Positions 10,336 to 63,516 of a DNA stretch of 64,000 bases are shown in pieces; within the stretch, counting starts at the first letter, position 1, and the number at the start of each line of letters is the position of its first letter. Under the pieces are notes generated by a model. That model was not told the origin of the DNA. It made no database searches and saw only the letters and a list, made by a program, of their open reading frames with translations. Location of the stretch: NCBI GenBank assembly GCA_963383645.1, contig OY726559.1:119249405-119313404 (forward strand), given 5' to 3'. This stretch comes from Muscardinus avellanarius (lineage: Eukaryota; Chordata; Mammalia; Rodentia; Gliridae). Both the position numbers and the translations under genes were made by a program.

Positions 10336-13120
10336 GACTTCTGGGAAGATGGTGACCAAGAAAAGCGGGGCTTAAGAGCCCCGCTAACAACCAATCTCCA
10401 TTACCACAAAATCAGCGCCTTTCATAGCCAGAAAACACCATCACCAGAAACAAAAAAATCACCAGGCTCCAGAGAGAAAGCGCACTGAGAACAGAGCTCA
10501 GAGCCACAGAGGAGATAACCGGCCTCATGCCCAAGGACGCGGCAGCAGCGCCATACTGCCGGCAGCAGTGGCAAATTCACCGGACGGCTACAGCAAGTCG
10601 AGGTGAGCCGCTGCGGAAGAGCCAGGCGGGATTTCTCGCTGCAGGTAAAATTTAAAGCTCCCAGTGGCTGAACTCAGCACACGCCGCAGGGATTCAGAGT
10701 GGAAGTCAAAACCAAGAAGAACTATGCCAGCCTCACGGCCGAGGGCGTGGCAGCGGCGCCATATTGCCACTGGCGGCAGCAGCAGAGAATTCACCGAATC
10801 CAATACAGCTACATCTGCATACTCAAGAACAGTGAGTCAAATTGCGGGCCACAGAGGAGAAATCCCAGTACTGTACTCCCTGGGACTTGACCCAGTGGGG
10901 GAGGGGCGGTGGCAGAGATATCACACCATAGGAGAACGGGCAACCTGGCACCCCCCCACAGTCTAAAGCAGCCTCTATCGACTCTCTGGGTCGGAGACTC
11001 TGTGATACAACCCAGTAAAGGAGTAGTGGGGTCTGAGATACTACAGACTCGAGATCCTGAACACCTTAAGTGAAGTCATAGTGACTCAAGATAGGAACCC
11101 AGAGAAGGCACAAACTTCCTAAATCATGGGAAGGAGGAATAATACTGGAGCAATGAATGCCCACAACCCCACAACATCAGAACCCGATAAAACAGAAAAT
11201 CAGAGATTTCTAGAAGATCAAATCAGGAAAATAACTGTAGAAATAACAGAGGTGCTTCGAAAAGAACTCAGAGAGAGCCAAAAAGAGATAAAGGATGTAA
11301 TTAATGAAGTAAAGGCCTCAATTCAAAGCACAAACAACCGATTAGATCACATGGAGAACAGAATCTCGCTCTTAGAAGATGAGCAATCCAAAAATGAACG
11401 CATAGTTTCTAATCTAGAAAAAAATATCCGACAGCAGGAATCTGACATTGAAGAAATATGGGCCCATTTTAAGAGAGCTAACCTAAGAATAATTGGAATA
11501 GAGGAGGGAAAAGAAAGTGAAACCAAAGGGATCAACAATCTCTTCAAGGAAGTAATAGCAGAAAATTTTCCAAACGTAGAGCAAGAGGTTGATACACAGG
11601 TCCAGGAAACTTATAGAACTCCCTTTAGACAGGATCGGAGAAGAGGATCCCCACGCCACATAATTGTCAAAATGACCAATGTGGAAGCCAAGCAGAGAAT
11701 CTTAAAGGCAACAAAAGCAAAGGGCCAAGTGACATTCAGAGGCAAACCAATTAGAATCACTCCAGACTTCCCAAACCAAGTCATGAGAGCCAGAAGGGCT
11801 TGGAGTAACATATTCCAAACTATGAAAGAAAACAACTTCCAGCCAAAAATTTCCTACCCAGCAAAACTTTCTATCAAATTAGATGGAGAAATAAGAAGCT
11901 TCCATGACAAACAGAAACTGAAGGAATTTATGTCTTCAAAACCAGCACTAGAGAAAATACTCAAAGAGATTAACTACAAAGAAGAAATAGGTAACACACT
12001 CCAGAACTAGAGAAACAAGATTTTCCATCCAACAAACAACTAAGATTGGTTATCTGTGGAGATTCATTATTTATGTTAGTCTTTTACCTATCTCTAAAGG
12101 GTATTGTTTGCCTTTATTGTTGTTAATTTTTAGGATTTCTAGTTGGAATATTAATATACCTTCAGATATAGCAATTGGAAATATTTTATCCCATTCTATT
12201 AGTAACTGTTAACTCTGTTTACATTGTCTTTGGATATACAATATTTTTTTATTTTTTAGGGAGTTTGTATACTCTTCTGTTGCCTGTGCCATTGTAATCA
12301 TAACCAAGAAATCACTGCCAATTTCAATGTTGTCAGGTTTAATGACCCAGATTTTCTCCTAAAAGTTTATAGTCTTAAGATATATATTTAGGTCTATTAT
12401 CTATTTTGAGTTAATATTTGTATATGGGATTAGGTAAGGGTCCAATTTTATTCTTTTCCATGTAATTATTATTTTTAACAATATTTAGTTAAAAGATTAT
12501 TATTTCCACCACCAAATGTTCGTGGAAACCTTGTCAAAAATAACTTGACAATATAGGGAAGAATTTAGCTCTAGGCTTGTATTTAACTCCAATGGTTTAT
12601 ATATCTGCCTTTAGAACAGTACTACACTGTTTCAATTATTGTAGCTTTATATGGTTTGAAATCAGAAAATATATATCTTCTAGCTTTGTTCTTTTTCAAG
12701 ATCGTTTTGGGTACCTAGACTCCATATTCCATATTAGGATAGATTTTTTTCTGAAAAATAAATATATAAATATATGATAGTTTCACCTAAAAAATAGAAA
12801 AAAAATATTCTCTGGTAAGAAAGAAAGCAAAAAGAAATATTGAAATGTTATCTTTAAGTCATCAAAAGCTTGGTATCAGACAAATGAAACTCTTATGTGA
12901 GATTATCATTTTTAATTTTAGATAAATTGCCATAATACTAGATGTCAATTACTAAGCCAAGCATGGGAGGGAGGGATAGGGAGAGAATGGGGTGGGGATT
13001 GGGTGGGGGCTGACTGGGAAAAGTGTGCATGTATGTCTACAAAAGTATGTATCCTACTATGATGTATGAATACAGTGCACCAATTAAAAAAATAAATAAA
13101 TAAAAATTAAAAAAAAAAAA
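10336..13120 (+). mobile_element. chimeric L1 element, copy A (5'UTR-ORF1-inverted ORF2-3'UTR)
   Basis: Starts GACTTCTGGGAAGATGGTG. The 5'UTR (10336-11125) is CpG-rich and contains two related blocks near 10.53 and 10.74 kb (GGCAGCAGCGCCATACTGCC and a GGCAGCGGCGCCATATTGCC). ORF1 spans 11126-12010. From about 12.06 to 12.78 kb the plus strand reads as ANTISENSE L1 ORF2, for example a CCAATGG..TATATATCTGCC stretch matching the reverse of the usual 'placed partner' region. From 12.79 kb the sequence is sense L1 3'UTR (G-rich run, TGTGCATGTATGTCTAC) with an A-rich end. There is no ORF2 in sense orientation. Copies B and C have the same joints. The target-site duplication is unclear (A-rich on both sides). 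Confidence 0.85.
11126..12010 (+). pseudogene. L1 ORF1p of chimeric copy A, shortened at both ends
   Basis: ORF1p is the L1 RNA-binding chaperone that trimerises through a coiled coil and coats its RNA in cytoplasmic RNPs. Visible here: heptad-rich segment at residues ~30-115 (SLLEDEQSKNERIVSNLEKN), RRM-like core ~120-220 (LRIIGIEEG, HIIVKMTNVEAKQRIL, GKPIRITPDFP) and C-terminal domain ~220-290 (ARRAWSNIF, PAKLSIKLDGE). Compared with copy C, the upstream ATG is changed to GTG and a TAA lies between it and the ATG used here. At the 3' end a CAG-to-TAG change removes the last 13 residues. Frame otherwise open, 294 codons. About 20 residue differences from copy C by eye. Probably inactive. Confidence 0.9.
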
Positions 13121-13130
13121 GAAACAGTGA

Positions 13131-13318
13131 GCTGGGCGTGGTGGCGCACACTTGTAATCCCCGTGCTTGGGAGGCGGACACGGGGATCGCGCAGGTTCGA
13201 AGCCAGACGCGCGTGCTGGCTTAGGAGACCCTGTTTCCCATAAAAATATAAAAAATAGGTCTGGGAGTGTAGCCTGGAGGTATAAGGGCTTCCAGGAACC
13301 CCAGTAACACCACCAAAA
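13131..13318 (+). repeat. B1-dID SINE (young type)
   Basis: GCTGGGCGTGGTGGCGCACA, CTTGGGAGGCGGACACGGGG, AGGTTCGAAGCCAG, then the diagnostic 3' half GGTCTGGGAGTGTAGCCTGG…GGGCTTCCAGGAACCCC. Flanked by AAAAAGAAACAGTGAGC on both sides (left copy ending 13131, right copy ending near 13350). It inserted at the very start of an older SINE. Confidence 0.9.
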
Positions 13319-13344
13319 AATAAGAAATAAGAAAAAAAGAAACA

Positions 13345-13550
13345 GTGAGCCAGGCATGCAGGCACACACTTGTAGTACCAGTATTCGAACGGCTGAGACA
13401 GGAGGATCACTGTTCACAGACAGCCTCAGCTACTTAGTGAGGTCCTCTGCAATTCACTGAGACCTTAAATATTAAAGGTAGAATGCCATTGGGTCCCATC
13501 CCAGTACTGCCAAAAAGAAAAAAAGAAAAGAAAAGAAAAGAAAGAAAGCA
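13345..13550 (+). repeat. old B1-ID SINE
   Basis: GAGCCAGGCATGCAGGCACA, ACAGCCTCAGCTACTTAGTG, TCCCAGTACTGCC with an (A3-4G)n tail at 13513-13548. The ID part is shortened. Confidence 0.8.
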
Positions 13551-14385
13551 GCAGAAACATGAACTATCAGTGTTTACTCTGTCAGGTACTTCTGTAAGAC
13601 CTTGATGAAAATTACCTCTTGTATTCTTTTAAACCAAACAAGTATTTGCTACTATATATCTTATGCAGAGAGGAGGAAACTGAGAAACAAAGAAGACAGG
13701 AAACCTGGAAGAAACAAAGAGACCAGCACCCATGTTACACACCCCATTTCCTCAATAGGCCGCTGCCAGATATCTTTTTTCTTGTTTTATTTTCTTCCCT
13801 TTCTCCAAATTTGTCTCTCGATGCATTAACTGGCTTACATGTTTAATTTGTTCCTTAACTTCTTTTCAATTAAAAAAGGTCTTTCATAATGTTTTTGAGA
13901 ACAAGTGTAGGTAAGTGAGGCAAATTCAGGCTCAGAGATGGCAGGATAACCATCAACCACGCTGATTTGCCTGTATCCAAGCCCAGGGCTCCTTTAGTAT
14001 CTGCAGGCCATTATGTTCAACAGACCAATGGCATCCACTGAGAGACTGGATGTAAACAGGGAGGGCCTGTCCTGCAGAGTGCCTGGGGGATGATGATTTC
14101 CCCTAGGTACCCTTATTCTTACTTAGGCTTCATGTCTCAAAGCTCCACATGGAACTACTGGAAGTCCTACATTCCTGAAGATCCACAGAACAGGGAGAGA
14201 CAGAGAATGGGCCACACATTCTCTGATGTTCCACAACACCTTCTAGGGTACCGCAGAGCATCAAAGGACTCTCCTGAACTTGTAATGGAGACTGTGTAGG
14301 AGAAGCAGGCTTCCGCCTCACCAGCACAGGCCCTGATCTCCCTCAGGGATGTCAGTTTCAGGTAGGAGCCCATGATTCTTCAGTT
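13551..14385. other. unrecognised sequence
   Basis: No repeat family or coding exon recognised. Frames of 65-75 codons at 13.6-13.85 and 14.1-14.37 kb overlap each other on both strands and look incidental. Confidence 0.3.
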
Positions 14386-14388
14386 CTT

Positions 14389-14441
14389 TAATGAAGGTAC
14401 TTTAATGAAGGTTCTTTAATGAAGGTTCTTTAATGAAGGTA
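14389..14441. repeat. 14-bp tandem repeat, about 4 units
   Basis: Four successive copies of the unit TTTAATGAAGGTTC (variant …GGTAC at the ends). Near-perfect and therefore recent. Confidence 0.95.
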
Positions 14442-14693
14442 CAATCACATTTTTCTAGCATAGCTAGCACAATGCTGTGTCAAGTAGTGATTTGTTAGAA
14501 TTTTATTCAGTCTGAGAAATGATTATAGCTGAAATTGTTTATCTACTGTTAAGAAAAGATTCATCTACACTTGAGATTCCTTGGACCACAATCAACAGTC
14601 AAAATGCCAGAGCTCTGACCTAAGGGTGCCTACAGCTCAGATGAGGACAGGGGTGAGGCAGGCAGGGCTCAGGGCACCAGCTAACTGTCAGGG

Positions 14694-15465
14694 AGATGCC
14701 AATCAAAACTACGCGGAGATTCCATCTAACCCCAATCAGAGTGGCAAGAATAAAGAAATCAAACAACAATTGCTGGTGAGTATGTGGGGAAAAAGGAACT
14801 CTTTTACACTGTAGGTGGGAGTGCAGAGTAGTTCGGTCACTATGGAGATCAGTATGGAGATTCCTTAAAAAACTGGGATTAGATCCACCATTTGATCTGG
14901 GTATACCACTCCTGGGTATCTTTCCAAAGGGTTGAAATCAGAGAACTACATTAACATATGCATACCCATGTTCATAGCAGCACAATTTGTAATAGCCAAA
15001 ATATGGAACCAACCTAGATCTCCATCAACAGATGAATGGATTGCATAAGTATGGGAAATACACACAATGTAATTCTATTCAGCTATCAAGAAGAATAAAA
15101 TAATAGCATTTGCAAGGAGATGGAAGGAACTGGAGAACATTACGTTAAGTGAGATTAGTCAAGCACAGAAAGAGAAGGGACTTACGTTTTCTCTAATATG
15201 CCCAAGCTAGGGAATAGTGGTAATACCAGAGGGACTCCAGATGATGGAGGGGAAATCTCAGCAAAGCTTGAATGGAAGGATAGAAGAGGAAGAAAGCTGA
15301 GGTTGTTCAACGGAGGAGCAACATACGAATATGTGTAATAGTATAAATATAACAAGGTTAACCTGGACACTCTTTATTGGGCAGGGGGAAGGGAAATGGG
15401 AGGGGCATGAAGCACAATCTAAATGTACACCATTTTCAATATGTTCCACTTATAAATAAAAAAAA
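14694..15465 (+). mobile_element. L1, 3' end of ORF2 plus 3'UTR
   Basis: 5'-truncated L1 beginning in the ORF2 C-terminal part (GATGCCAATCAAAACTAC, CCTGGGTATCTTTCC, AACCTAGATCTCCATCAACA). The 3'UTR from ~15.17 kb (AGAGAAGGGACTTACGTTT, GGAAATGGGAGGGGCATGAA) ends TTATAAATAAAAAAAAATAG. It belongs to a different 3'UTR subfamily from that at 7.8 kb and matches those in reverse at 49.6 and 57.0 kb. Many stops. Confidence 0.85.
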
Positions 15466-15530
15466 ATAGTGGTTTGTAGCTCAGAGGCCAGATTCCTTTG
15501 GGTTCAACTCCCAGTACCAAACAAACAAAA
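15466..15530 (+). repeat. SINE ID-part fragment
   Basis: GTGGTTTGTAGCTCAGAGGC…GGTTCAACTCCCAGTACC, the tRNA-like 3' half only. Confidence 0.7.
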
Positions 15531-15579
15531 ACCTGTCATGACTTCTCCAAGCATTGTAGTTACCCCCTAAGCTCTTACC

Positions 15580-16030
15580 TATTTGGAAGGTATCAGGTAT
15601 AAGTGTAGCTCCAAATTAAAGCATCTGAAATCTAGGGCAGGGTCTAATGATTCTATCTCCAACACCCCACATGGAATTGGTACTTGTAAGCATTCTAGGC
15701 TCTGGGTCCACCCAGTGGAGCTCTTGGCCAGGTGTACACGCTCACTGTGCAGCAGCTTCTCTCCCAGTCCTCACTGCTCAGCTCCGGCTGCTCCTTGAGG
15801 GTTTTCAATGTTGTTAGGTGTTCCTCAGTCTGAACTCAACTTACCCTTATTCTAATCTCTTTGGTTCCCACCTCCTTCACCATTACTTGATCCATTTTCA
15901 ATTATTCTCCTCCTGCCAATCTGCTGACTTTGTTTTATCTGCTCCCTCAGTTCTGTTCTCTCAGGCTGGGGACTGGCTCTGGATCCTGTCGGAGACACAT
16001 GAAGTAGGGATCAAGTTCCAATCTCTGCTA
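15580..16030 (+). repeat. old duplicated block D, copy 2 (first part only)
   Basis: Diverged counterpart of 5.48-5.90 kb: shared AGGGCAGGG, TACTTG-AAGCA, CACTGTGCAGCAG, CCTCACTGCTCAGC, CTAATCTCTTTGGTTCCCAC, CCACCTCCTTCACCATTACT. The continuation present at 5.9-6.7 kb is absent here. Confidence 0.7.
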
Positions 16031-16057
16031 CTGGCTCCAGAGAACTTTATTTTATGT

Positions 16058-16083
16058 TATTCATTCATTCATTCATTCATTGT
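16058..16083. repeat. (ATTC)n microsatellite
   Basis: Six tandem ATTC units at the tail of a reverse SINE. Confidence 0.95.
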
Positions 16084-16490
16084 AATTCTTGGGATGCAAC
16101 CCAGGGGCATTCAACCTCCATGCTACACCTCAGTCCTATATTTATTCTTTTTTTTTTTTTTTTGGTGGTACTGGGGTTCCTGGAAGCCCTTCTATCTCCG
16201 GGCTACACTCCCAGACCTATTTTTACATTTTTATTTGGAAACAGGGTCTCCTAAGCCAGCGCGCGCGGCTAGCTTCGAACCTGCGCGATCCTCCTGTCTC
16301 TGCCTCCCAAGCGCGGGGATTACAAGCGTGCGCCACCACGCCCGGCTATATTTATTCTTTTATTTGGAAACTGGATCTCACTAATTTGCAGAGTCCCACG
16401 AGTTGCTGAGACTAGTTGCAAACCTGTGATCCTCCTGCCTCAGCCTCTCAAGTACAGGGATTACAAGCATTTGCCATCATTCCCGGCTTT
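16084..16490 (-). repeat. old B1-ID SINE split by B1-dID
   Basis: ID part at 16084-16136 (GGGATGCAACCCAGGGGCAT) and the rest at 16362-16490 (GAAACTGGATCTCACTAATT…CAGCCTCTCAAGTACAGGG). The young SINE between them is flanked by a 16-bp target-site duplication CTATATTTATTCTTTT. Confidence 0.85.
16152..16346 (-). repeat. B1-dID SINE (young type), nested
   Basis: Full-length reverse copy: T-run, GGTGGTACTGGGGTTCCTGG, CTCCGGGCTACACTCCCAG, CCAGCGCGCGCGGCTAGCTT, CCAAGCGCGGGGATTACAAG, ending GCGCCACCACGCCCGGC. The retained CpGs suggest a recent insertion. Perfect target-site duplication on both sides (CTATATTTATTCTTTT). Confidence 0.95.
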
Positions 16491-16639
16491 GCAGAGCACT
16501 TGAAACATACATATCAGGCTTTGTCAGAAATACCTGGTAAGAAAGAATGCAGATGACCCTGCAAGGCACACAGTGTCTCTGACTGACATTTAGCACATAA
16601 GGAGGATCCATAGCTCTCCAACCATAGAAAATGAATTTT

Positions 16640-17062
16640 TCTTTTTTGCCAGTCTGGGGATAGAACCCAGGGGCATTCAACTTCTGAGCTAAACCCCTGT
16701 CCTGCTTTCTTTATTCGTTGTTTTTTTTTTTTTTTTTTTTTTTTGGTGGAACTGGGTTTCCTGGAAGCCCTTCTACCTCCGGGCTACATTCCCAGGCCTA
16801 TTTTATACTTTTTATTTGGAAACAGGGTCTCTTAAGCCAGCGAGGCTGGCTTTGAACATGCACGATCTTCCTGTCTCTGCCTCCCAAGTGCAAGAATTAC
16901 AAGTGTGCACCACCAAACCCGGCCTATTTTTTTATTATTTATTTTGAAACAGGGTCTCAATAAGTTGCAGAGGGCCTCACTAAGTAGCTGAGGCTGTCTG
17001 CGCACCGCAGTCTCAGTCTCCCTAATGCTGGGATTACAAGTGTGCACCACCACGCCCAGCTG
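16640..17062 (-). repeat. old B1-ID SINE split by B1-dID
   Basis: ID part 16640-16718 (GGGGATAGAACCCAGGGGCA) and remainder 16926-17062 (GAAACAGGGTCTCAATAAGT…GGGATTACAAGTGTGCACCA). The young SINE lies between the two parts. Confidence 0.85.
16722..16922 (-). repeat. B1-dID SINE (young type), nested
   Basis: Reverse copy with a long T-run (~25), GGTGGAACTGGGTTTCCTGG, CTCCGGGCTACATTCCCAG, CCTCCCAAGTGCAAGAATTA. Somewhat more diverged than the 16.15-kb copy. Confidence 0.9.
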
Positions 17063-17460
17063 AAAATGAATTTTTCGTCCTCTGTAGTGCTTTTGGAAGA
17101 ATAGCCTGAAGTCCACAATAAAATGCATTCAGCCACATATGAATTTCAGCCTCATAAGACCCTGATTAGAGACTCCAGCCTCACCTTACTGCACTTGTTG
17201 CACTGTGTTGTCAGCAGTTTCCTATGTCTCCAAGGAGGAGTGCAGGAGTCAGAAACCTGGGTCTGCTCTCCATGCATTCCCGCACCCACTGAAGGACCTG
17301 ACACCTAATAACACACAAAGTTTGCCCCTGGTCTAAGCCCGTGGGTGGGAGAGTGGTGACTAAGCATTCCACTGTTGTCTTAACAATTTTTAGTCCCAGA
17401 GAATCTGAGAAATGGAAGTTGTGAAAGGCTTTTTAACATTAAAAGAGCTGTCCTTCCTTT
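17063..17460. other. no recognised feature
   Basis: Unique-looking; nothing supported. Confidence 0.3.
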
Positions 17461-17462
17461 TT

Positions 17463-17522
17463 TTCTTTTTCATACTGGGAATTGAAGCCAGGAACATTCT
17501 ACCTTTGAACTACCGCCCCCAC
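17463..17522 (-). repeat. SINE ID-part fragment
   Basis: CATACTGGGAATTGAAGCCA GGAACATTCTACC in reverse orientation. Confidence 0.65.
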
Positions 17523-17529
17523 AATTATT

Positions 17530-19170
17530 TCTAACTTTAATATTTCCATAAAATAACAAATCCTGGTTCTAAAAAGTATCTGTCCGTGGAGAAGAGGAAA
17601 AAAATTATTGCAACAGCAAAGAAAAGAATTCTTGGGAGGGCAGGACTTTTGCACAGAGCAGGAAACTAGAAGGCAAAGCAGAGTAGAGAAATTGCAGGAG
17701 GTCTGAATGTTCTTTCCTGTTCCTGAACTCAAAATTGATTTAACTGTATTCTCAGAGATGCAAAGCTGTGAGCGGGCAGAGAGAATATGATTTGGTGGTG
17801 ACCCTCTGTTGTTGGCTGATAGTACTTGTTTTATAACCCAATAACAAAAAGCCCCTGGAGGAAATTCTGAGGAAAGATGAAGGCTGAGAAAGAACTTGAA
17901 CACTTACAGCAAGTTGAACATCTCTGTCCTTGTGATTCTACTGTGTAATGCTGAGCCCTCTGGACTCTGAATGCAGTGATCCTTTCAGATAAAACCAACA
18001 CTTTACCCAGGACAAAACTGGTTCTGCAAAGCAGTCCCACTCCTCCAACACAGTGGATGGGATTGGGCTTCCCCTTCCAAGGTCCCCTCTACTTGCTGGT
18101 GTAAGGAACAGGAAGGTTTGGTCCAGGGAAGAGGCTGAGCAGACCAGGGCTGCTCCAATCCTTGTGCTTCCATCTACAGGTATAACCTCCTGGATCAGAT
18201 TGACCCAAGTGTGGCAGGGCAACCTTCTGGTGAGTGTTTTCCATCTACGTAGGATGCTCCCTCTTTTCAGCTCCTCCTCTTGGAAGTTACATTCATGTGT
18301 CTCCAAGGCTGAGTGCACCCTGAGGAATTTATCCAGGTTGGGCCTTTCTCCATCACTGCCTAAGCCTTGAGGAGAGGACACCACCACCACAACACAAACG
18401 GACCCATAACAACCCTGGGGTTATTACAGAGCACATCTAGTGATCTGCTCATGCTCTAAGTCCTGGGATTGATTGTATCTCCAGATTAACAGAATGCTGT
18501 TCATGGCCAAAAGGCCTCCATAGGAGGAATTTGGCTCAGGGGTAGAATCTGAATTTCCTCTTCCCGCTCCCTTTGGCCATAGAGCCACATGATCTAAAAA
18601 TCAGGCTGAAGAAGACTCAGCTGTCCACACTTGCGGAGCCCACCTGGCCCTGTGTAGCTCTGCCGGTAGCTGACCTCATCCCGACTCTACTCAGTGACCT
18701 GGCAGTTTTGATACTCTCAGCTGACTCTCTGGCATCCAGGGTGAAATTGTCTACCCTGAGATTTCATCAACCAGCCTTTCCTCCACCCTCGCTCACACAC
18801 CTACAGGATGGGCATTGCCTTATAGGTCTCTGAACAGAAAATGATCCATGTAAATAGAGAAATGATCCACTATTTCTCAGATTTCTGAATCCCTTCTTCC
18901 ATTAGGATGGAACAGCTTTTCCTCTCCTGACTGTGGGCCTGGGGTCCACTGGGGCATCTCTTCTTATTTCAATAGGATTCACTCCAGCCAGCTGCTAATA
19001 GATTCCTGTCCTTCATGTCTCTATTGATACCTGCTTGATAGATGGTCTCCTATCCCCGATCCTGACACCTACCCTCAGAAACTGCCTCAATACTGGGGCT
19101 TAACAGGCTGAGAAGGCAAGACTGCAGATTCATGAAAAAACAGCTCAAGTGTCATTGCCCAACACAAACT
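17530..19170. other. unrecognised single-copy-like sequence
   Basis: About 1.6 kb without recognised repeats. A minus-strand frame of 150 codons (17938-18390) and others have no recognisable domain, signal peptide or splice context that I trust. Confidence 0.35.
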
Positions 19171-19177
19171 GAAAATC

Positions 19178-20280: not shown

Positions 20281-20283
20281 TGG

Positions 20284-40100: not shown

Positions 40101-42913
40101 ATGAGAGAATTTTATTTTTTAATTTTTTTTATTTTTTTTAATTTTATTTTATTAGTGCACTGTATTCATACATCATAGTGGGATACAAACTTTTGTAGAC
40201 ATACATGCACACATTGCCCAGTCATTCCCCTCCCAATCCCCACCCCATTCTCTCCCCATCCCTCCCTCCCATGCTTGGCTTAGTGGTTGACATCTAGTAT
40301 TATAGCAATATCCAAAATTAAAAATGATAATCTCACATAACAGTTTCATTTGTCTGATGCCAAGCTTTTGATGATTTAAAGATAACATTTCAATATTTCT
40401 TTTTGCTTTCTTTCTTACCAGAGCATATTTTTTCCTGTTGTTTTGGTGAAACTATCATATATTTATATATTTATTTTTCAGAAAAAAATCTATCCTAATA
40501 TGGAATATGAATTCTAGATACCCAAAACGATCTTGAAGAAGAACAAAGCTAGCAGATATATATTTTCTGATTTCAAACCATATAAAGCTACAATAATTGA
40601 AACAGTGTAGTACTGTTCTAAAGGCAGATATATAAACCATTGGAGTTAAATACAAGCCTAGAGCTAAATTCTTCCCTATATTGTCAAGTTATTTTTGACA
40701 AGGTTTCCACGAACATTTGGTGGTGGAAATAATATTCTTTTAACTAAATATTGTTGAAAAATAATAATTACATGGAAAAGAATAAAATTGGAACCTTACC
40801 TAATCCCACATACAAGTATTAACTCAAAATAGATAAAAGACCTAAATATAAATCTTAAGACTATAAACTTTTAGGAGAAAATCCGGGTCATAAAACCTCA
40901 CAACATTGAAATTGGCAGTGATTTCTTGGATATGATTTCAATGGCACAGGCAACAGAAGAATATACAAACTCCCTAAAAAATAAAAAAAATATTGTATAT
41001 CCAAAGACAATGTAAACAGAGTTAAAAGTTACTAATAGAATTGGATAAAATATTTCCAAATGCTATATCTGAAGGTATATCAATATCCCAACTAGAAATC
41101 CTAAAAATTAACAACAATAAAGGCAAACAATACAATTTAGAGATAGGTAAAAGACTAACATAAATAATGAATCTCCACAGATAACCAATCTTAGTTGTCT
41201 GTTGGATGGAAAGTCTTGTTTCTCTGGTTCTGGTGAGTGTTACCTATTTCTTCTTTGTAGTTAATCTCTTTGAGTATTTTCTCTAGCGCTGGACTTGAAG
41301 ACATAAATTCCTTCAGTTTCTGTTTGTCATGGAAGCTTCTTATTTCTCCATCTAATTTGACAGATTGTTTTGCTGGATAGGAAATTTTTGGCTGGAAGTT
41401 GTTTTCTTTCAGAGTTTGGAATATGTTACTCCAAGCCCTTCTGGCTCTCATGACTTGGTTTGGGAAGTCTGGAGTGATTCTAATTGGTTTGCCTCTGAAT
41501 GTCACTTCGCCCTTTGTTTTTGTTGCCTTTAAGATTCTCTGCTTGGCTTCCACATTGGTCATTTTGACAATTATGTGGCATGGGGATCCTCTTCTCTGAT
41601 CCTGTCTAAAGGGAGTTCTATAAGTTTCCTGGACCCGTGTATCAACCTCTTGCTCTATGTTTGGAAAATTTTCTGCTATTACTTCCTTGAAGAGATTGTT
41701 GATCCCTTTGGTTTCACTTTCTTTTCCCTCCTCTATTCCAATTATTCTTAGGTTAGCTCTCTTAAGATGGGCCCATATTTCTTCAATGTCAGATTCCTGC
41801 TGTCGGATATTTTTTTCTAGATTAGAAACTATGCGTTCATTTTTGGATTGCTCATCTTCTAAGAGCGAGATTCTGTTCTCCATGTGTTCTAATCGGTTGT
41901 TTGTGCTTTGAATTGAGGCCTTTACTTCATTAATTGCATCCTTTATCTATTTTTGGCTCTCTATGAGTTCTTTTCGAAGCACCTCTATTATTTCTACAGT
42001 TATTTTCCTAATTTTATCTTCTAGAAATCTCTGATTTTCTGTTTTATCGGGTTCTGATGTTGTGGGGTTGTGGGCGGTATTCATTGCTCCAGTATTATTC
42101 CTCTTTCCCATGATTTCGGATGCTTGTGCCTTCTCTGGGTTCTTCCCTTGGGTCATTATGACTTCACTTAAGGTGTTCTGGATCTCGAGTCAGTAGTATC
42201 TCAGACCCCACTACTCCTTTACTGGGTTTTATCACAGAGTCTCCGACCCAGGGAGTCGATAGAGGCTGCTTTAAACTATGGGGGGTGCCAGGTTGCACGT
42301 TCTCCTATGGTGTGATATCTCTGCCACCACCACTCCCTCACTGGGTACAGTGAGGTACAGTACTGGGATTTCTCCTCTGTGGCCCGCAATTTGACTCACT
42401 GTTCTTGAGTACGCAGATGTAGCTGTACTGGATTCGGCGCATTCACTGCTGCTGCCGCCGCCGGTGGCAATATGGCGCCTCTGCCACGCCCTCGGCCATG
42501 AGGCTGGCGTATTTTTTCTTCTCTGGTTTTGATTTCCACTCTGAATCCCTGCAGCGTGTGCTGAGCTCAGCCACTGGGAGCTTTAAATCCTCTCTGCGCC
42601 GAAAGATCCTGCCTGGCTGTTCCGCAGCGGCTCACCTTGGCTTGCTGTAGCCGTCCGATGAGTTCGCTGCTGCCGCCGGCAGTATGGCGCTGCTGCCGCG
42701 TCCTCGGGCACGTGTGTCTCCTCTGTGGCCCTGAGCTCTGTTCTCAGTCCGCTTTCTCTCTGGAGCCTGGTGGTTTTTTTGTTTTTCTGGTGATGGTGTT
42801 TTCTGGCTATGAAAGGCGCTGGTTTTGTGGTAATGGAGATTGGTTGTTAGCAGGGCTCTTAAGCCCCGCTTTTCTCGGTCGCCATCTTCCCGGAAGTCGA
42901 TGAGAGAATTTTA
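40101..42913 (-). mobile_element. chimeric L1 element, copy B, with 14-bp TSD
   Basis: Flanked by ATGAGAGAATTTTA at 40101-40114 and 42900-42913. On the minus strand: 5' end (GACTTCCGGGAAGATGGCG) near 42898, CpG-rich 5'UTR to 42157, ORF1 42156-41191, then ORF2-derived sequence that is sense on the PLUS strand (about 41.15-40.45 kb), i.e. inverted relative to the element, then 3'UTR to 40115 with A-rich tail (T-rich on plus). About 2.78 kb. Inserted into the 5'UTR of an older L1 on the same strand. Confidence 0.9.
41191..42156 (-). pseudogene. L1 ORF1 of chimeric copy B, one premature stop
   Basis: Full-length ORF1 frame of 321 codons with a single nonsense change at codon 70 (GAG/GAA to TAG, in …RKELIESQK*), after which the same frame continues unbroken to …HPTDN. 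There is one extra codon near residue 27 (MNTAHNP versus MNAHNP in copy C). Coiled coil, RRM core (HIIVKMTNVEAKQRIL) and C-terminal domain (ARRAWSNIF) all present. Recently inactivated, judged by so little damage. Confidence 0.9.
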
Positions 42914-53870: not shown

Positions 53871-53884
53871 AAAAAAAAGAAAAG

Positions 53885-54034: not shown

Positions 54035-54091
<57 letters not shown>
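53885..54091. repeat. (TA)n/(TATATG)n microsatellite region
   Basis: Discontinuous AT-dinucleotide runs, the longest at 54030-54091 (TGTG core flanked by TA repeats). Confidence 0.9.
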
Positions 54092-54094
<3 letters not shown>

Positions 54095-54681: not shown

Positions 54682-55149
54682 CTATGAGCCAGGTAAAAAG
54701 GGAGACCACAGTGTTACAGAGTGCAAGACTGGCTTTCTCAAAGTATCTCCTGGTCCTCATTGAAAGCCTCATGGAGAGGCCACACAACTGTCACTCTCTG
54801 AGATGAAATACTCTGAAGGTGTCTTTAAGAGGAAAATGATTAGCATTGAGGGTCCATATATGAAAAAGTGAAAATCACCAGATAAACAACACAATTATAT
54901 ACCTCAATGCCCTAACAAAACAGGAACATGATGGATACACCCTACCTATTCACTACAATGGTCATGGAAATCATGGTCTACTTCACTGGATGAATTAAAA
55001 AGAATCCATGTAGGAAGCCACTTCAATTCTAAAATCTTTATCTTAGGAAATGCACTACAGAAACAGAAAAGATACAGATAAGAAAATAGGAACAGCAATG
55101 GGCGCAGAAGGCTGAGTCTACTCAATGCCATTGGACTTTTCACTTACAA

Positions 55150-56108: not shown

Positions 56109-56109
56109 T

Positions 56110-56982
56110 CTTGTTCCTGTTTTTAGGGGGGATTCTTGAAGTTTTTCCCCATTTAATATAATGTTGGTGGTGGGCTTATTGTAGATTGCCTTTATAATGT
56201 TGAGATATGTTCCTTCTATTCCAATTCTCTGCAGTGTTTTTTTATCATAAATGGGTGTTGGATTTTATCAAATGCTTTTTCAGCATCTATTGAAATGATC
56301 ATGTAATTTTTGTCTTTGATTTTGTTTATATGATGAATTACATGGATTGATTTTTGTATGTTGAACCAGCCTTGCATCGCTGGGATGAATCCTACCTGGT
56401 CATGGTGTAAGATTTTCTTTATGTGGTTTTGAATGCGTGTTGCTAGTATTTTGTTTAATAGTTTTGCATCCAAGTTCATCAGAGATATAGGCCTGTAGTT
56501 TTTCTTCCTTGAACTGTCTTTATTCGGTTTGGGTATTAGTGTGATGTTGGCTTCATAGAATGTATTTGGAAGAGTCCCACTTTTTTTTATTTCATGAAAT
56601 AGTTTGAGGAGTATTGGGGTTAGATCTTCTATAATGGTTTTAAAGAATTAACTTGGAAAGCCATTTAGTCCTGGGCTTCTCTTTGTTTTTTTTGTTTTTT
56701 GTTTTTGTTTGTTTGTTTGTTTGTTTTTTGGTGGTACTGGGGTTCCTGGAAGCCCTTCTTCCTCCGGGCTACACTCCCAGACCTATTTTATATTTTTGAA
56801 ACAGGGTCTCTTACGCCAGCACGGCTGGCTTCGAACCTGCGCGATCCTCCTGTCTCCGCCTCCAAAGCGCGGGGATTACAAGCGTGCGCCACCACGCCCG
56901 GATGGGCTTCTCTTTGACTGTAAGGTTTTTATTGCTGTTTCTTTTATTTTTGATTATTTATTTATTTATTTATTTTAAGACA
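56110..56982 (-). mobile_element. L1 ORF2 fragment with nested SINE
   Basis: Minus strand reads reverse-transcriptase sequence [20 protein letters not shown], then [17 protein letters not shown] and [14 protein letters not shown] (56216-56479), standard L1 RT motifs. Truncated at both ends. Split by a B1-dID at 56.69-56.90 kb whose target-site duplication is GGGCTTCTCTTTG. Confidence 0.9.
56690..56904 (-). repeat. B1-dID SINE (young) with 13-bp TSD
   Basis: Reverse copy with (TTTG)n-rich tail, GGTGGTACTGGGGTTCCTGG, CCTCCGGGCTACACTCCCAG, AAGCGCGGGGATTACAAGCG, CACCACGCCCGG. Flanked by GGGCTTCTCTTTG. Confidence 0.95.
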
Positions 56983-58855
56983 AATTTTTATTGAAAATAA
57001 ATGGTATACATATAAACTGTACTTGATGCCCTCCCCCCCACCCCCGTTTGCCCTTCCCCCCTCCCACCAATTATTATCCAGGGTAGCCATGCCCTATTCA
57101 TACTTTTACACATATTAGAATGTAGACCCTCATTAATCAAGCTCAGCCTTTCTCCTATCTTTCCATTCAAACTTTGCTGAGATTTCCCCTCCATTATCTG
57201 GAGTCCCTATGTTCCCTAGTTTGGGCATATTAGAGGAAGCATATGTCCCTTCTCCTTCTGTGCTTGGCTGATCTCACTTAATATAATGCTCTCCAGATCT
57301 TTCCATCTTCTTGTAAATGCCATAATTTTGTTGTTCTTTACAGCTAATAGAATTGCATTGTGGGTATTTCCCATAATTGTGCAATCCATTCATCTGTTGT
57401 TGGGGACCTGGGTTGGTTCCATATTTTTGCTATTATGAATTGTGCTGCTATGAACATAGGTATGCATATGTTGCTGTAGTTCTCTGATTTCAACCCCTTT
57501 GGAAAAATACCCAGGAGTGGTAGAGCTGGTTCATATGGTGGATCTATTCCCAGTTTTCTTAGGAATCTCCACACAGATCTCCATAGTGGCTGAACTAGTT
57601 TGCACTCCCACCAACAGTGTAGAAGAGTTCCTCTTTCCCCACATCCTTGTAGCATTTGTTATTATTTGATTTCTTTATGCTTGCCACTCTGACTGGTTAT
57701 ATGGAATCTCAGTGTAGTTTTGATTTGCATCTCCCTGATGGCTAGTGATGAAGAACGTCTTTTCATGAATCTATCAGCCATTTGTATCTCGTCTTTTGTG
57801 AAGTGTCTGTTCAGTTCAGTTGTCCATATCTTGATTGGGTTGTTTGTTTTGCTAGTATAGAATCTTTTGAGCTCTTTAGGTTATTGATGGTTTCCTTTGA
57901 TGAGAAGAAACTTTTTAGTTTGATGCCATCCCACTTGTTAATTCTTGCTTTAATTTCCTGAGCTTTGGAGGTTTTGTTGAGAAAGTTACTTCCTGTGCAA
58001 ATATATTGTGGCGTTGAGCCTATGCTCTCTAATAACTTCACAGTCTCTGGTCTAATTTCTAAGTCTTTGATCCATCTCAAGTTGATTCCTGTGCATGGTG
58101 AGAGGTAAGTATTTAGTTCCATCTTTCTACAAATGGATAGCCAGTTCTCCCAGCACCATTTGTTGAAAAGGCTGTCTTTCCTCCAGCGTATGAGTTTAGC
58201 CATTTGTCAAAGATTAATTGACTAAAGATGTGTGGATTTGTTTCTGTATCTTCTATTCTAATCCTCTTGTCAGTATATCTGTTATTGTGCCAGTACCATG
58301 ATGTTTTTACTACTATTGCTCTATAGTATAATTTGAAGTCTGGGATTGTGATGCCTCCCACATGGTTCTTATTGCTGAGAATTGCTTTGGCTATTCTGGG
58401 TCTTTTCTTTCTCCATATAAAGTTCATGATTGATTTTTCTAGGTCTCTGAAGAATGTTGCTGGTATTTTAATGGGAATTGCATTGAATCTATAGATCAGT
58501 TTTGGCAGAATGGCCATTTTGATATTTATTCTGCCTATCCATGAGCATGGGAGATCTTTCCATCTTCCAAGGTCTTCTTCAATTTCTTCCTTTAATGTTT
58601 TATAGTTTTTGTTGTAGAGGTCTTTTACATCTTTGGTTATGGTTATTCCTAGGTATTTTATTGGTTTTGAGGTTATAGTGAATGGAATTGTTTTCTTTGT
58701 TTCTTTCATTGTGGATTCATTGTTGGCAAAAAAAAAAAGCCACTGATTTCTTTAGGTTGATTTTGTATCCTGCAACTTTGCTGAATTTGTCAATCATCTC
58801 CAGAAGTCTTTTGGTTGAGTTCTTTGTGTCCTCCAGATAAAGGATCATGTCATCT

Positions 58856-59083
58856 GCAAATAAGGATAATTTTTTTTTTGGTGGTACTGGGGTTCCTGGA
58901 AGCCCTTCTACTTCTGGGCTACACTCCCAGACCTATTTTTTATACTTTTTTATTTGGAAACAGGGTCTCATAAGCCAGCGCGCGCGGCTGGCTTCCAACC
59001 TGCGCGATCCTCCTGTCTCTGCCTCCCAAGCGCGGGGATTACAAGCGTGCGCCACCACGCCCGGCAAATAAGGATAATTTTAA
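58856..59083 (-). repeat. B1-dID SINE (young) with ~17-bp TSD
   Basis: Element about 58872-59065 flanked by CAAATAAGGATAATTTT. TCTGGGCTACACTCCCAGAC, CCAGCGCGCGCGGCTGG, CCAAGCGCGGGGATTACAAG. Inserted exactly where L1 ORF2 encodes its FADD active site. Confidence 0.95.
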
Positions 59084-59162
59084 TTCCTCTCTTCCTATAT
59101 GGATTCCTTTGACTTCCTTCTCTTGTCTTATTGCTGCGGCAAGAATCTCAAGGACTATATTG

Positions 59163-59385
59163 AAAAGGAGTGGTGAGCCGGGTATGGTGGCGCACGCTTG
59201 TAATCCCCGCATTTGGGAGGCAGAGACAGGAGGATCACGCTGGTTCGGAGCCAGCCTCGCTGGCTTAAGAGACCCTATTTCCAAATAAAAATATAAAAAT
59301 AGGTCTGGGAGTGTAGCCCGGACGTAGAAGGGCTTCCAGGAACTCCAGTACCACAAAAAAAAAAAAAAAAAAAGGAGTGGTGATA
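59163..59385 (+). repeat. B1-dID SINE (young) with TSD
   Basis: GAGCCGGGTATGGTGGCGCA, TCCCCGCATTTGGGAGGCAG, TCTGGGAGTGTAGCCCGGAC, then an A-run. Flanks share AAAAGGAGTGGTGA. Opposite in orientation to the SINE 100 bp away, so transcripts could fold into an inverted-repeat hairpin. Confidence 0.95.
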
Positions 59386-60463
59386 GTGGGCATCCTTGTC
59401 TTGTTCCTGATTTTAGAGGAAATTCTTGCAGTTTTTCCCCATTCAATATAATGTTGGCTTTGGGTTTTCAGTATATTGCCTATGTTGAAGTACCTTCCTT
59501 CTATTACAGTTTTCTGCAGTGTTTTTAACATGAATGGGTGTTGGATTTTTTCAAATGCTTTTTCAGCATCTATTGCTATGATGATGTGGTTTTTGTTCTT
59601 GGCTCTATTTATGTGGTGAATAACATGTATTGATTTGTGTATGTTGAACCAGCCTTGTTTTTCTGGGATGACACCAACTTGGTCATGGTGTATTCTCATG
59701 ATATGGTTTTGAATGCATATGGCTAGTATTTTGTTTAGAATTTTTGCACCCATATTCACTAAGAAATTGGTCTGTAGTTTTCCTTTCTTGAGGTATCGTT
59801 ATTTGGTTTGGGGATTAATGTGATACTGGCCTCATAGAAGGAATTTGGGAGAGTTCCATCTCTTTCAATTTCCTAGAACAAGTTATGAAGTATTAGTATT
59901 AGTTGTTCACTGAAGGTTTTGTAGAATTCAGCTGGAAACCCATCTGGGCCTGGGCTTTTCTTTGGTGGAAGAATTTTTATTGCCGTTTCTATTTCTTTCG
60001 TTGCTATTGGTTGGTTTAGGCTTGCTGTGTCCTCTTGGCTGAGTTTAGAAATCTATCAATTTCTTCCATGTTTTCTAGTCTATTGGAGTATAAATTTTAA
60101 AGTAGTTTCTGATAATTTTAAAAATTTCTTTGCTCTCTGTGGTGATATCTTTTTCATTTCTAATTTTAATAATTTGAGTTGATTCTCTTTTTCTTTTGGT
60201 TAGGTTGGCCAGGGGTTTATCAATTCTATTAATCTTTTCAAAGAACCAGCTTTTTGGGGTTTTTTGTTCTCTGTTTCATTTATTTCTGCTCTAATTTTAA
60301 TGATTTATTGCCTTCTTCTGACTTTGGGAATAGACTGTTGCAGTCTTTCTAGGTCCTTGAGTTGTGTTATTAGGTTCTTTACTTGGTGATTCTCTGTTCT
60401 TATGTGGGCACTCAGTGCAATAAACGTTCCTCTTAATACTGCCTTCATGGTGTCCCATTATTT

Positions 60464-60736
60464 CGTTTAATAGTTTTGCATCCAAGTTCATCAGAGATAT
60501 AGGCCTGTAGTTTTCCTTCCTTGAACTGTCTTTATTTGGCTTGGGTATAAATGTGATGTTGGCTTCATAGAATGTATTTGGAAGAGTCTCACTTTTTTCT
60601 ATTTCATGAAATAGTTTGAGGAGTATTGGGGTTAGCCCTTCTAAAAAGGTTTTATAGAATTCACTTGGAAAACCATCTAGTCCTGGGCTTTTCTTTGATT
60701 GTAAGGTCTTTATTGCTGTTTCAATCTCTGATTTTT
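60464..60736 (-). mobile_element. L1 ORF2 fragment (left part), resumes at 63517
   Basis: Minus-strand L1 RT region nearly repeating 56.45-56.96 kb (TTTAATAGTTTTGCATCCAA, GTTTGAGGAGTATTGGGGTT). Interrupted by chimeric copy C and continued at 63517-63572 (TTATTGGTTGGTTTAAGTGT, TCTTGACTCAGTTTAGG). Confidence 0.85.
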
Positions 60737-63516
60737 TTTATTTATTTTATTGGTGCACTGTATTCATACATCATAGTGGGATACAAACTTTTGTAGACAT
60801 ACATGCACACATCGCCCAGTCAGCCCCCACCCGATCCCCACCCCATTCCCTCCCCATCTCTCCCTCCCATGCTTGGCTTAGTGGTTGACATCTAGTATTA
60901 TAGCAATTTATCCAAAATTAAAAATGATAATCTCACATAACAGTTTCATTTTTCTGATACCAAGCTTTTGATGACTTAAAGATAACATTTCAATATTTCT
61001 TTTTGCTTTCTTACCAGAGAATATTTTTTTTCTATTTTTTTTAGGTGAAACTATCATATATTTATATATTTATTTTTCAGAAAAAAAATCTATCCTAATA
61101 TGGAATATGGATTCTAGATACCCAAAACGATCTTGAAAAAGAACAAAGCTAGAAGATATATATTTTCTGATTTCAAACCATATAAAGCTACAATAATTGA
61201 AACAGTGTAGTACTGTTCTAAAGGCAGATATATAAACCATTGGAGTTAAATACAAGCCTAGAGCTAAATTCTTCCCTATATTGTCAAGTTATTTTTGACA
61301 AGGTTTCCACGAACATTTGGTGGTGGAAATAATATTCTTTTAACTAAATATTGTTGAAAAATAATAATTACATGGAAAAGAATAAAATTGGAACCTTACC
61401 TAATCCCACATACAAGTATTAACTCAAAATAGATAAAAGACCTAAATATAAATCTTAAGACTATAAACTTTTAGGAGAAAATCCGGGTCATAAAACCTCA
61501 CAACATTGAAATTGGCAGTGATTTCTTGGATATGATTTCAATGGCACAGGCAACAGAAGAATAAAAAAACTCCCTAAAAAATAAAAAAATATTGTATATC
61601 CAAAGACAATGTAAACAGAGTTAGAAGTTACTAATAGAATGGGATAAAATATTTCCAAATGCTATATCTGAAGGTATATTAATATTCCAACTAGAAATTC
61701 TAAAAATTAACAACAATAAAGGCAAACAATACAACTTAGAGATAGGTAAAAGACTAACATAAATAATGAATCTCCACAGATAACCAATCTTAGTTGTCTG
61801 TTGGATGGAAACTCTTGTTTCTCTGGTTCTGGTGTGTGTTACCTATTTCTTCTTTGTAGTTAATCTCTTTGAGTATTTTCTCTAGCGCTGGTTTTGAAGA
61901 CATAAATTCCTTCAGTTTCTGTTTGTCGTGGAAGTTTCTTATTTCCCCATCTAATTTGATAGAAAGTTTTGCTGGGTAGGAAATTTTTGGCTGGAAGTTG
62001 TTTTTTTTCAGAGTTTGGAATATGTTACTCCAAGCCCTTCTGGCTCTCATGACTTGGTTTGGGAAGTCTGGAGTGATTCTAATTGGTTTGCCTCTGAATG
62101 TCACTTGGCCCTTTGTTTTTGTTGCCTTTAAGATTCTCTGCTTGGCTTCCACATTGGTCATTTTGACAATTATGTGGCGTGGGGATCCTCTTCTCCGATC
62201 CTGTCTAAAGGGAGTTCTATAAGTTTCCTGGATCTGTATATCAACCTCTTGCTCTATGTTTGGAAAATTTTCTGCTATTACTTCCTTGAAGAGATTGTTG
62301 ATCCCTTTGGTATCACTTGCTTTTTCCTCCTCTATTCCAATTATTCTTAGGTTAGCTCTCTTAAAATGGGCCCATATTTCTTCAATGTCAGATTCCTGCT
62401 GTCGGATATTTTTTTCTAGATTAGAAACTATGTGTTCATTTTTGGAATGATCATCTTCTAAGAGCGAGATTCTGTTCTCCATGTGTTCTAATCGGTTGTT
62501 TGTGCTTTGAATTGAGACCTTTACTTCATTAATTGCATCCTTTATCTCTTTTTGGCTCTCTCTGAGTTCTTTTCGAAGCACCTCTATTATTTCTACAGTT
62601 ATTTTCCTAATTTTATCTTCTAGAAATCTCTGATTTTCAGTTTTATCGGGTTCTGATGTTGTGGGGTTGTGGGCATTCATTGCTCCAGTATTATTCCTCT
62701 TTCCCATGATTTCGGAAGCTTGTGCCTTCTCTGGGTTCCTCCCTTGGGTCACTATGACTTCACTTAAGGTGTTCAGGATCTCGAGTCTGTAGTATCTCAG
62801 ACCCCACTACTCCTTTACTGGGTTGTATCACAGAGTCTCCGACCCAGGGAGTCGATAGAGGCTGCTTTAGACCATGGGGGGGTGCCAGGTTGGGAGTTCT
62901 CCTATGGTGTGATATCTCTGCCACCGCCACTTCCCCACTGGGTCGAGTCCAAGGAAGTACAGTACTGGGATTTCTCCTCTGTGGCCCGCAATTTGACTCA
63001 CTGTTCTTGAATTCGCAGATGTAGCTGTACTGGACTCGTTGAATTCAATGCTGCTGCCGTCGGTGGCAATATGGCGCCACTGTTACGCCCTCGGCCGTGA
63101 GGCTGGCTTATTTCTTCTTGGTTTTGAATTCCACTCTGAGTCCTTGCAGCATGTGCTGAGCTCAGCCACTGGGAGCTTTAGATGTTTCCTGCACTGAAAA
63201 ATCCTGCCTGGCTGTTCCGCAGCGGCTCACCTCGGCTTGCTGTAGCCGTCCAGTGAATTCGCTGCTGCCGCTGGCAGTATGGCGCTGCTGCCGCATCCTC
63301 GGGTGTGAGGCCGGTGTATCTCCTCTGTGGCTCTGAGGTCTGTTCTCAGTCCGCTTTCTCTCTGGAGCCTGGTGATTTTTTTGTTTCTCTGGTGATGGTG
63401 TTTTCTGGCTATGAAAGGCGCTGATTTTGTGGTAATGGAGATTGGTTGTTAGCAGGACTCTTAAGCCCTGCTTTTCTCGGTCGCCATCTTCCCGGAAGTC
63501 TCAATCTCTGATTTTT
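60721..63516 (-). mobile_element. chimeric L1 element, copy C, with perfect 16-bp TSD
   Basis: Flanked by TCAATCTCTGATTTTT at 60721-60736 and 63501-63516. Minus-strand order: 5' end (GACTTCCGGGAAGATGGCG) at 63500, CpG-rich 5'UTR to 62753, ORF1 62752-61790, inverted ORF2-derived segment about 61.75-61.05 kb (plus-sense), 3'UTR to 60737. Length 2764 bp. It has the same joints as copies A and B. The intact TSD and open ORF1 make it the best-preserved copy. Confidence 0.95.
61790..62752 (-). CDS. L1 ORF1p, intact frame, in chimeric copy C
   Basis: Encodes an L1 ORF1 protein of 320 residues, the RNA-binding chaperone that packages L1 RNA; it would act in cytoplasmic RNPs. N-terminal tail 1-45 (MTQGRNPEKAQASEIMGKRN), coiled coil ~45-140 with heptad leucines/isoleucines (ENRISLLEDDHSKNEHIVSN), RRM ~145-245 (LRIIGIEEEKASD, HIIVKMTNVEAKQRILKATK, GKPIRITPDFPNQ), C-terminal domain ~245-310 (ARRAWSNIFQTLKKNNFQPK, PAKLSIKLDGE). 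The start was chosen as the first ATG; the ORF ends …FHPTDN. Mammalian ORF1p is usually ~340-370 residues. No ORF2 follows in sense, so any mobility needs ORF2p supplied by other L1s. Expression unknown. Confidence 0.9.
   Translation of the reverse strand: MTQGRNPEKAQASEIMGKRNNTGAMNAHNPTTSEPDKTENQRFLEDKIRKITVEIIEVLRKELRESQKEIKDAINEVKVSIQSTNNRLEHMENRISLLEDDHSKNEHIVSNLEKNIRQQESDIEEIWAHFKRANLRIIGIEEEKASDTKGINNLFKEVIAENFPNIEQEVDIQIQETYRTPFRQDRRRGSPRHIIVKMTNVEAKQRILKATKTKGQVTFRGKPIRITPDFPNQVMRARRAWSNIFQTLKKNNFQPKISYPAKLSIKLDGEIRNFHDKQKLKEFMSSKPALEKILKEINYKEEIGNTHQNQRNKSFHPTDN

What the first reader, a model, noticed from the sequence alone, without database searches (positions are those of the whole stretch)
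10336..63500. A family of chimeric, ORF1-only L1 elements with a fixed internal inversion
Three copies (10336-13120 +; 40115-42898 -; 60737-63500 -) share 5'UTR, ORF1, a ~0.7-kb ORF2-derived segment in reverse orientation, and L1 3'UTR, each 2.76-2.79 kb. Single L1 insertions often carry 5' inversions (twin priming), but those differ copy to copy. An identical inversion in three loci with separate target sites means the rearranged form was itself a copied source. ORF1-only 'HAL1' elements are known in mammals; one with a built-in inverted ORF2 piece is not something I recognise. It would rely on ORF2p from other L1s in trans.
Basis: partly seen in the sequence, partly recalled or inferred. Interest (0 to 1): 0.88.

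Follow-up and report, generated by a model that had tools for sequence, protein, structure and literature searches.

The report
ORF1-only L1 with backwards fossil tail
A mobile element that keeps only the first of L1's two genes, with a backwards scrap of a long-decayed L1 built into its tail, has left its signature junction at about 20,000 places in this genome, and young full-length L1s carry a closely related tail that they likely took from it.

Summary
Three copies (10336-13120 +, about 40110-42898 -, 60737-63500 -) share their junctions, are 93.7-94.8% identical and have unrelated flanks. Three paralogous loci show copy C's empty target site. The ORF1/block junction occurs 19,996 times with up to 3 mismatches, control 0. 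This is a HAL1-type, ORF1-only family whose ORF1 shows purifying selection (omega 0.31-0.41, P 0.003).

The "inversion" needs correcting: the backwards segment is not the element's own ORF2 but an already decayed L1 fossil (59% identical to a modern ORF2, stops in every frame) inside a ~0.9-kb block.

Nor is it confined to the ORF1-only form. Most of the block plus the tip is also the 3'UTR of young autonomous L1s, two of which differ at 1 base, plus gaps, in 7,074. These go with other L1s by ORF1 and ORF2 but with the ORF1-only family by 3' tip. Best reading: ancient capture, spread in trans, then likely transfer of the tail to an L1 by template switch. The direction is inferred; the test on older copies could not be run.

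The parts
10336..13120 (+). Copy A, full-length ORF1-only element with A-rich end
   Evidence: Alignment with B and C; target-site duplication not convincing
10336..11125 (+). Copy A 5'UTR, L1-type
   Evidence: First 121 bases about 82% identical to young L1s; A 125-788 about 72-75%
11126..12010 (+). Copy A ORF1, 294 codons, open (ends at a TAG 11 codons before the older stop position 12041-12043)
   Evidence: both L1 ORF1p Pfam domains
12045..12940 (+). Captured block of copy A, between ORF1 and the L1 3' tip
   Evidence: Left edge: L1 homology ends after CAACTAAG. Right edge: homology to other L1 tips restarts at about 12941
12104..12714 (-). Antisense fossil of L1 ORF2 (aa 859-1070) within the block
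   Evidence: tblastn and 200 shuffles; 59% DNA identity over 622 columns
12045..12197 (+). Left 153 nt of the block, present in the ORF1-only family and absent from the L1 3'UTRs seen
12198..13090 (+). Part shared with the 3'UTR of young full-length L1s
   Evidence: 88-91% identity to 14 L1 rows
12715..12940 (.). Unassigned stretch of the block between fossil ORF2 and L1 tip
   Evidence: No L1 match beyond short weak hits
12941..13090 (+). L1 3' tip with G-rich tract and AATAAA-type end
   Evidence: Sequence; homology to other L1 tips
40110..42898 (-). Copy B, full-length; target-site duplication AAATTCTCTCAT
41191..42111 (-). Copy B ORF1 remnant, one in-frame stop after codon 54
40295..41189 (-). 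Copy B captured block (right edge approximate)
   Evidence: Alignment
60737..63500 (-). Copy C, full-length, inserted into an L1 ORF2
   Evidence: empty sites in L019-L021
61790..62707 (-). Copy C ORF1, 305 codons, open
   Evidence: matches solved L1 ORF1p 2yko, E 2.5e-60; Pfam
60895..61788 (-). Copy C captured block (right edge approximate)
   Evidence: Alignment
60721..60736 (-). Target-site duplication of copy C, 3' side (AAAAATCAGAGATTGA)
63501..63516 (-). Target-site duplication of copy C, 5' side

Best explanation
This is an ORF1-only (HAL1-type) L1 derivative whose 3' region holds a ~0.9-kb block with an antisense piece of a long-decayed L1 ORF2; it is likely copied in trans by the ORF2 protein of autonomous L1s, and its tail was likely passed to one autonomous L1 lineage by a template switch. 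Shown: the anatomy, the shared junctions, about 20,000 junction sites, copy C's clean insertion with a target-site duplication, one ORF1 lineage with a signal of purifying selection, and the same block and tip as 3'UTR of young L1s whose ORF1 and ORF2 belong with other L1s. Inferred: (1) the founder arose when an L1 cDNA joined ORF1 (break just after its stop) to an RNA holding the antisense fossil and ending in an L1 3' tip; (2) the element makes its own ORF1p, keeps L1 5'UTR, G-rich 3' tract and poly(A), and borrows ORF2p; (3) later, reverse transcription that began on an ORF1-only RNA switched at about A 12198 to an ordinary L1 RNA just past ORF2, giving a complete L1 with the borrowed tail.
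For: Shared junctions, different flanks. Clear, differing duplications in 8 of 13 copies. Empty sites for C in 3 paralogues, flanks 98.5-99.8% identical. Junction counts 19,996 and 786. Fossil nature: 59% identity, stops in all frames, 200-shuffle control. Same tail on young L1s with ORF2 directly upstream in 10 of 10 pattern loci. Incongruence: ORF1 and ORF2 place these L1s with other L1s, the 3' tip with the ORF1-only family. ORF1-only form has 153 nt more of the block. ORF1 omega 0.31-0.41, P 0.003.
Against: The block tree gives two reciprocal clades (23 and 14 rows), not L1 nested inside the ORF1-only family, so direction is not shown. The L1 clade stem (0.026) is no shorter than the ORF1-only stem (0.016). 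The ORF1 root rests on a distant outgroup and the ORF1-only side has weak support (62/54); L1 branching is mostly weak. Most ORF1-only rows were picked by similarity to A. ORF2p in trans is not demonstrated. No source locus of the block was found. The search for older ORF1-only copies did not complete (18 tries).
Confidence: 0.68

Rival explanations
1. The block entered an autonomous L1's 3'UTR first; the ORF1-only family arose from that L1 by loss of ORF2, and today's L1s later lost 153 nt of the block.
For: Reciprocal clades in the block tree allow it. Simple deletion is a plausible way to make an ORF1-only element (recalled).
Against: None of the L1s seen with the block keeps the extra 153 nt (4 full L1s, 10 pattern loci, which however were found by the shorter junction). 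ORF1-only ORF1 lies outside the sampled L1s, deep L1 branches lack the block, and ORF1 separates these families more than the block does.
Confidence: 0.22
2. One reading: the inverted part is the founder's own ORF2, turned round by twin priming and then copied.
For: It is ORF2 in reverse orientation inside an L1-derived element.
Against: 59% identity and stops in every frame against about 92% for ORF1 with the same L1; about 0.2 kb of unassigned sequence lies between it and the tip.
Confidence: 0.04
3. The ORF1-only form and the L1s took the block independently from one third source RNA or locus.
For: Left junctions differ.
Against: They also share the right junction and the same L1 tip, so two independent captures would need the same right-hand end.
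Confidence: 0.05
4. The copies are one segmental duplication, not separate insertions.
For: A has twins sharing flank at C3 119.195 and 120.12 Mb, C has one at C3 119.52 Mb.
Against: A, B and C flanks differ, duplications differ, empty sites exist, and the junction is found about 20,000 times.
Confidence: 0.01

Closest known systems
HAL1 (half-L1) families of mammals, including guinea pig and human
   Same: ORF1-only, poly(A), target-site duplications, thought to use L1 ORF2p; ORF1 kept coding for a long time in guinea pig (passages in PMC5753468, PMC3627910, PMC5322556)
   Different: 3' region built from an antisense L1 fossil and shared with young full-length L1s; junction at about 20,000 places here against about 2,100 HAL1 copies reported for human (passage in PMC5322556). 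Not compared with Repbase or Dfam
L1 UTR replacement in L1 evolution
   Same: An L1 lineage changed its 3'UTR for an unrelated one (replacement stated in a passage of PMC5753468)
   Different: A likely donor is present in the same genome and is a non-autonomous L1 derivative
Chimeric L1 insertions made by template switching or related routes
   Same: Joins L1 cDNA to other RNAs; proposed there, as speculation, to drive 5'UTR swaps (PMC13174262, abstract and passages)
   Different: Here chimeras became copied families, and the swap is in the 3'UTR
SVA / LAVA composite elements
   Same: Composite, non-autonomous, mobilised by L1 in trans (abstract of PMC7353768 in the listing)
   Different: They are not ORF1-coding L1 derivatives (recalled)
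Twin-primed inverted L1 insertions
   Same: L1 sequence in reverse orientation within an insertion

Membership tests
HAL1-type (ORF1-only L1 derivative) | Encodes L1 ORF1p | tested here: met
   Both L1 ORF1p Pfam domains in A and C; solved L1 ORF1p match for C; full open frame of 294 or 305 codons in 9 of 15 rows, of which A and L002 are twins
HAL1-type (ORF1-only L1 derivative) | Lacks ORF2 | tested here: met
   No sense ORF2 frame in the three window copies; ORF1 runs straight into the block
HAL1-type (ORF1-only L1 derivative) | L1-derived 5'UTR and 3' tip, poly(A) tail, target-site duplications | tested here: met
   clear duplications in 8 of 13 copies, weak or low-complexity in L003 and L015, not convincing in A, 2 not scored; empty sites
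HAL1-type (ORF1-only L1 derivative) | Copied as a family with ORF1 kept under selection | tested here: met
   One clade of 15 rows, junction counts, omega 0.31-0.41, P 0.003; part of the changes may lie on the L1 branch
HAL1-type (ORF1-only L1 derivative) | Mobilised by L1 ORF2p in trans | not testable with these tools
   Inferred from L1-type insertion without ORF2
HAL1-type (ORF1-only L1 derivative) | Identity with a named HAL1 entry of Repbase or Dfam | not tested
   Neither library is on hand; the original HAL1 paper is not held
Twin-primed L1 inversion | Inverted part is the element's own sequence | tested here: not met
   59% identity to modern ORF2 and stops in every frame, ORF1 about 92%
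Twin-primed L1 inversion | Breakpoints private to each copy | tested here: not met
   Junctions shared by A, B, C and found 19,996 times
Autonomous L1 | Intact ORF2 in sense orientation | tested here: not met
   Absent from the three window copies; present in L037 and L038, which share the tail

The most novel reading that the evidence does not exclude
A parasite of L1 re-tailed its host: an ORF1-only element that had built a fossil L1, backwards, into its 3'UTR donated that 3'UTR to an autonomous L1 and founded the L1 lineage that looks most recently active in this genome.
Probability: 0.58. Interest if true: 0.78.

Novelty: new variant of a known kind. Interest (0 to 1): 0.66.

Why it matters
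L1 lineages are known to replace their untranslated regions (passage in PMC5753468). Here a likely donor, a recipient and both junctions survive in one genome, so a 3'UTR swap can be tested directly. If the direction holds, a non-autonomous L1 derivative fed sequence back into the autonomous line. An ORF1-coding passenger also outnumbers the L1s that share its tail (19,996 against 786 junction sites, a rough ratio because the patterns differ). ORF1 under selection in the passenger supports the idea that ORF1p made in cis matters even when ORF2p is borrowed.

Tried and rejected
Rejected: inversion of own ORF2; one segmental duplication; chance antisense similarity (200 shuffles). The Rfam scan of the window at gathering scores found 0 matches.

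Led nowhere: a search for ORF1-only copies with an ancestral-looking ORF1 end did not complete (18 tries). Bao and Jurka 2010, the HAL1 paper, is not held; what is said of HAL1 comes from passages of citing papers. Species not determined: a rodent of squirrel or dormouse affinity is a guess from recall. No absolute ages are given, because no rate could be fixed.

Limits. Tip tree: the row L047 in the group of L1s without the block is a mis-grab of a neighbouring ORF1-only fragment, and L044 and L048 gave no row. L044 was labelled as lacking the block although its 3' end was not found. The ORF1 tree dropped 6 duplicate or partial rows, and 2 more. L041 was too short for the block trees. The 12 long L1 regions were picked by me, for long open frames, out of 150 listed matches. 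Most ORF1-only rows were picked by similarity to A; 9 were spread over the first 100 exact junction hits, all on C1, and 8 of these 9 (L077 dropped) gave the mean pairwise difference of 3.4%. The duplication finder took the longest word with up to 1 mismatch, so lengths lean upward; L008 and L014 lie in similar A-rich SINE-like ends, so their duplications resemble each other.

Full report
Observation. Copies A, B and C align over their whole length at 93.7-94.8% identity. They share the ORF1 end, the block, the tip and an A-rich end, and have unrelated flanks. B carries AAATTCTCTCAT and C AAAAATCAGAGATTGA on both sides. Of 13 copies examined, 8 have clear duplications (B, C, L005, L008, L012, L013, L014, L016), L003 and L015 are weak or low-complexity, A is not convincing, and L004 and L006 were not scored because the script's 5' motif was not found. 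Copy C has three natural empty sites: L019, L020 and L021 carry both flanks (98.5-99.8% identical) with a single target and no element. The nick position fits the L1 endonuclease rule TTTT/A (rule recalled). So C entered as one finished unit, block included.

Scale. The 30-base ORF1/block junction occurs 11,671 times exactly and 19,996 times with up to 3 mismatches; the reversed pattern gives 0 in both. The 40 candidates scored, of 767 in the first look, for a 301-base junction query all span it at 99-100%. Nine copies spread over the first 100 exact hits were fetched; 8 of them differ from one another by 3.4% on average, range 0.8-5.0%. In the block tree the ORF1-only rows form a ladder ending in the group of A, as a single source lineage would give.

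What the backwards part is. The antisense strand of the block matches ORF2p aa 859-1070 in two frames, 46.2 and 32.3 bits; the best of 200 dinucleotide shuffles is 27.3. As DNA it is 59% identical over 622 columns to ORF2 of a young L1 of this genome, and stops crowd every frame. ORF1 of copy A is about 92% identical to that same L1. An inversion of the founder's own ORF2 should not be so diverged, so an already decayed fossil was captured. Homology to other L1 3' tips restarts at about A 12941, which leaves about 0.2 kb (12715-12940) unassigned. The left junction falls just after the old ORF1 stop: L1s read CAACTAAG then CAAAG, the family CAACTAAG then ATTGG.

The same tail on autonomous L1s. 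Of 12 long L1 regions picked for long open frames out of 150 listed matches, L037, L038, L040 and L042 carry A 12198-13120 as 3'UTR just after ORF2 at 88-90% identity; L041 has a shortened version; L039, L043, L045, L046, L047 and L048 share only the tip (72-78%); L044's 3' end was not found. L037 and L038 have open frames of 322 codons (305 from the ATG) for ORF1 and 1,278 for ORF2, and the ORF2 product of L037 matches the solved L1 ORF2 protein 8uw3 nearly end to end. These two differ at 1 base, plus gaps, in 7,074 aligned columns and have different flanks, so this L1 moved very recently. The L1-type junction occurs 786 times, control 0. The two patterns differ in length and degeneracy, so 19,996 against 786 is a rough ratio. 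In 10 of 10 loci fetched by that pattern, ORF2 lies directly upstream.

Incongruence. ORF1: 15 ORF1-only rows form one clade (100/100); L1s with and without the block are not two clades, though L1 branching is mostly weak. With three old ORF1s as a distant outgroup the 9 L1s form a clade (93/97), and the ORF1-only rows lie outside it with weak support (62/54). ORF2, last 1.2 kb: L1s with and without the block differ by 3.2% on average (84 pairs). 3' tip: L1s with the block group with the ORF1-only family, away from 4 L1s without it (100/100; a fifth row, L047, is a mis-grab). Block: 23 ORF1-only and 14 L1 rows are reciprocal clades with stems of 0.016 and 0.026 on a midpoint root. The 5'UTRs of L1s and copy A are only about 72-75% identical, against 88-91% in the block. 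So one lineage took its 3'UTR from the other, or both from a close common source.

Direction. The ORF1-only form holds 153 nt more of the block; L1s without the block include the deeper L1 branches; and in the L1s, ordinary 3'UTR sequence continues past ORF2 before the switch at about A 12198. These fit reverse transcription that began on an ORF1-only RNA and switched to an L1 RNA. Against a firm claim: the block clades are reciprocal, the sampling leans towards copies like A, and the search for older ORF1-only copies did not complete (18 tries).

Function. ORF1 has both L1 ORF1p domains and matches the solved L1 ORF1p. Nine of 15 ORF1-only rows keep a full frame of 294 or 305 codons. Fixed differences between 15 ORF1-only and 8 L1 rows are 20 synonymous and 24 nonsynonymous: omega 0.31, or 0.41 against the family's own mutation spectrum, P 0.003. 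Part of these changes may lie on the L1 branch. Pairs within the family give 0.53, pairs of L1s 0.29. The family thus seems to have kept ORF1p working while it replicated. Copying in trans by ORF2p is inferred.

Comparison. The tested features of HAL1-type elements are met. HAL1 are described as ORF1-only, arising several times, with ORF1 kept coding for about 29-44 million years in guinea pig and about 2,100 human copies (passages in PMC5753468, PMC3627910 and PMC5322556; the original paper is not held). UTR replacement in L1 is known (PMC5753468, passage), and L1 chimeras are catalogued, with a speculation that they drive 5'UTR swaps (PMC13174262, abstract and passages). I found no paper describing a HAL1-type element with an antisense fossil tail, or one whose 3'UTR passed to an L1; that rests on listings from searches of the held library, without Repbase or Dfam.

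Noticed in passing
Window = G000:C3:119249405-119313404; paralogues at C3 119.03, 119.195, 119.52, 119.88, 120.08 and 120.12 Mb: The window lies in a segmentally duplicated stretch: the L1 that hosts copy C is found at 5 places at 98-100% identity, and copies A and C have twins.
   Followed up: partly
L037 1568-1921 and L038 likewise (5'UTR): The young full-length L1s carry an imperfect repeat of about 160 bp in the 5'UTR (80% identical), and an open frame of 257 codons upstream of ORF1.
   Followed up: no
L041 about 1998-2445: An L1 with the captured tail but with most of the block's right part missing, so the shared 3'UTR can be shortened further.
   Followed up: no
L003 and L004 (C5 127.50 Mb): Two ORF1-only copies about 4 kb apart in opposite orientation; L003 has an internal deletion in its block.
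   Followed up: no
L077: The most basal ORF1-only row of the block tree is rearranged: its block is interrupted and part of it is repeated.
   Followed up: no
window 12715-12940: About 0.2 kb of the block between the fossil ORF2 and the L1 tip has no assigned origin.
   Followed up: partly
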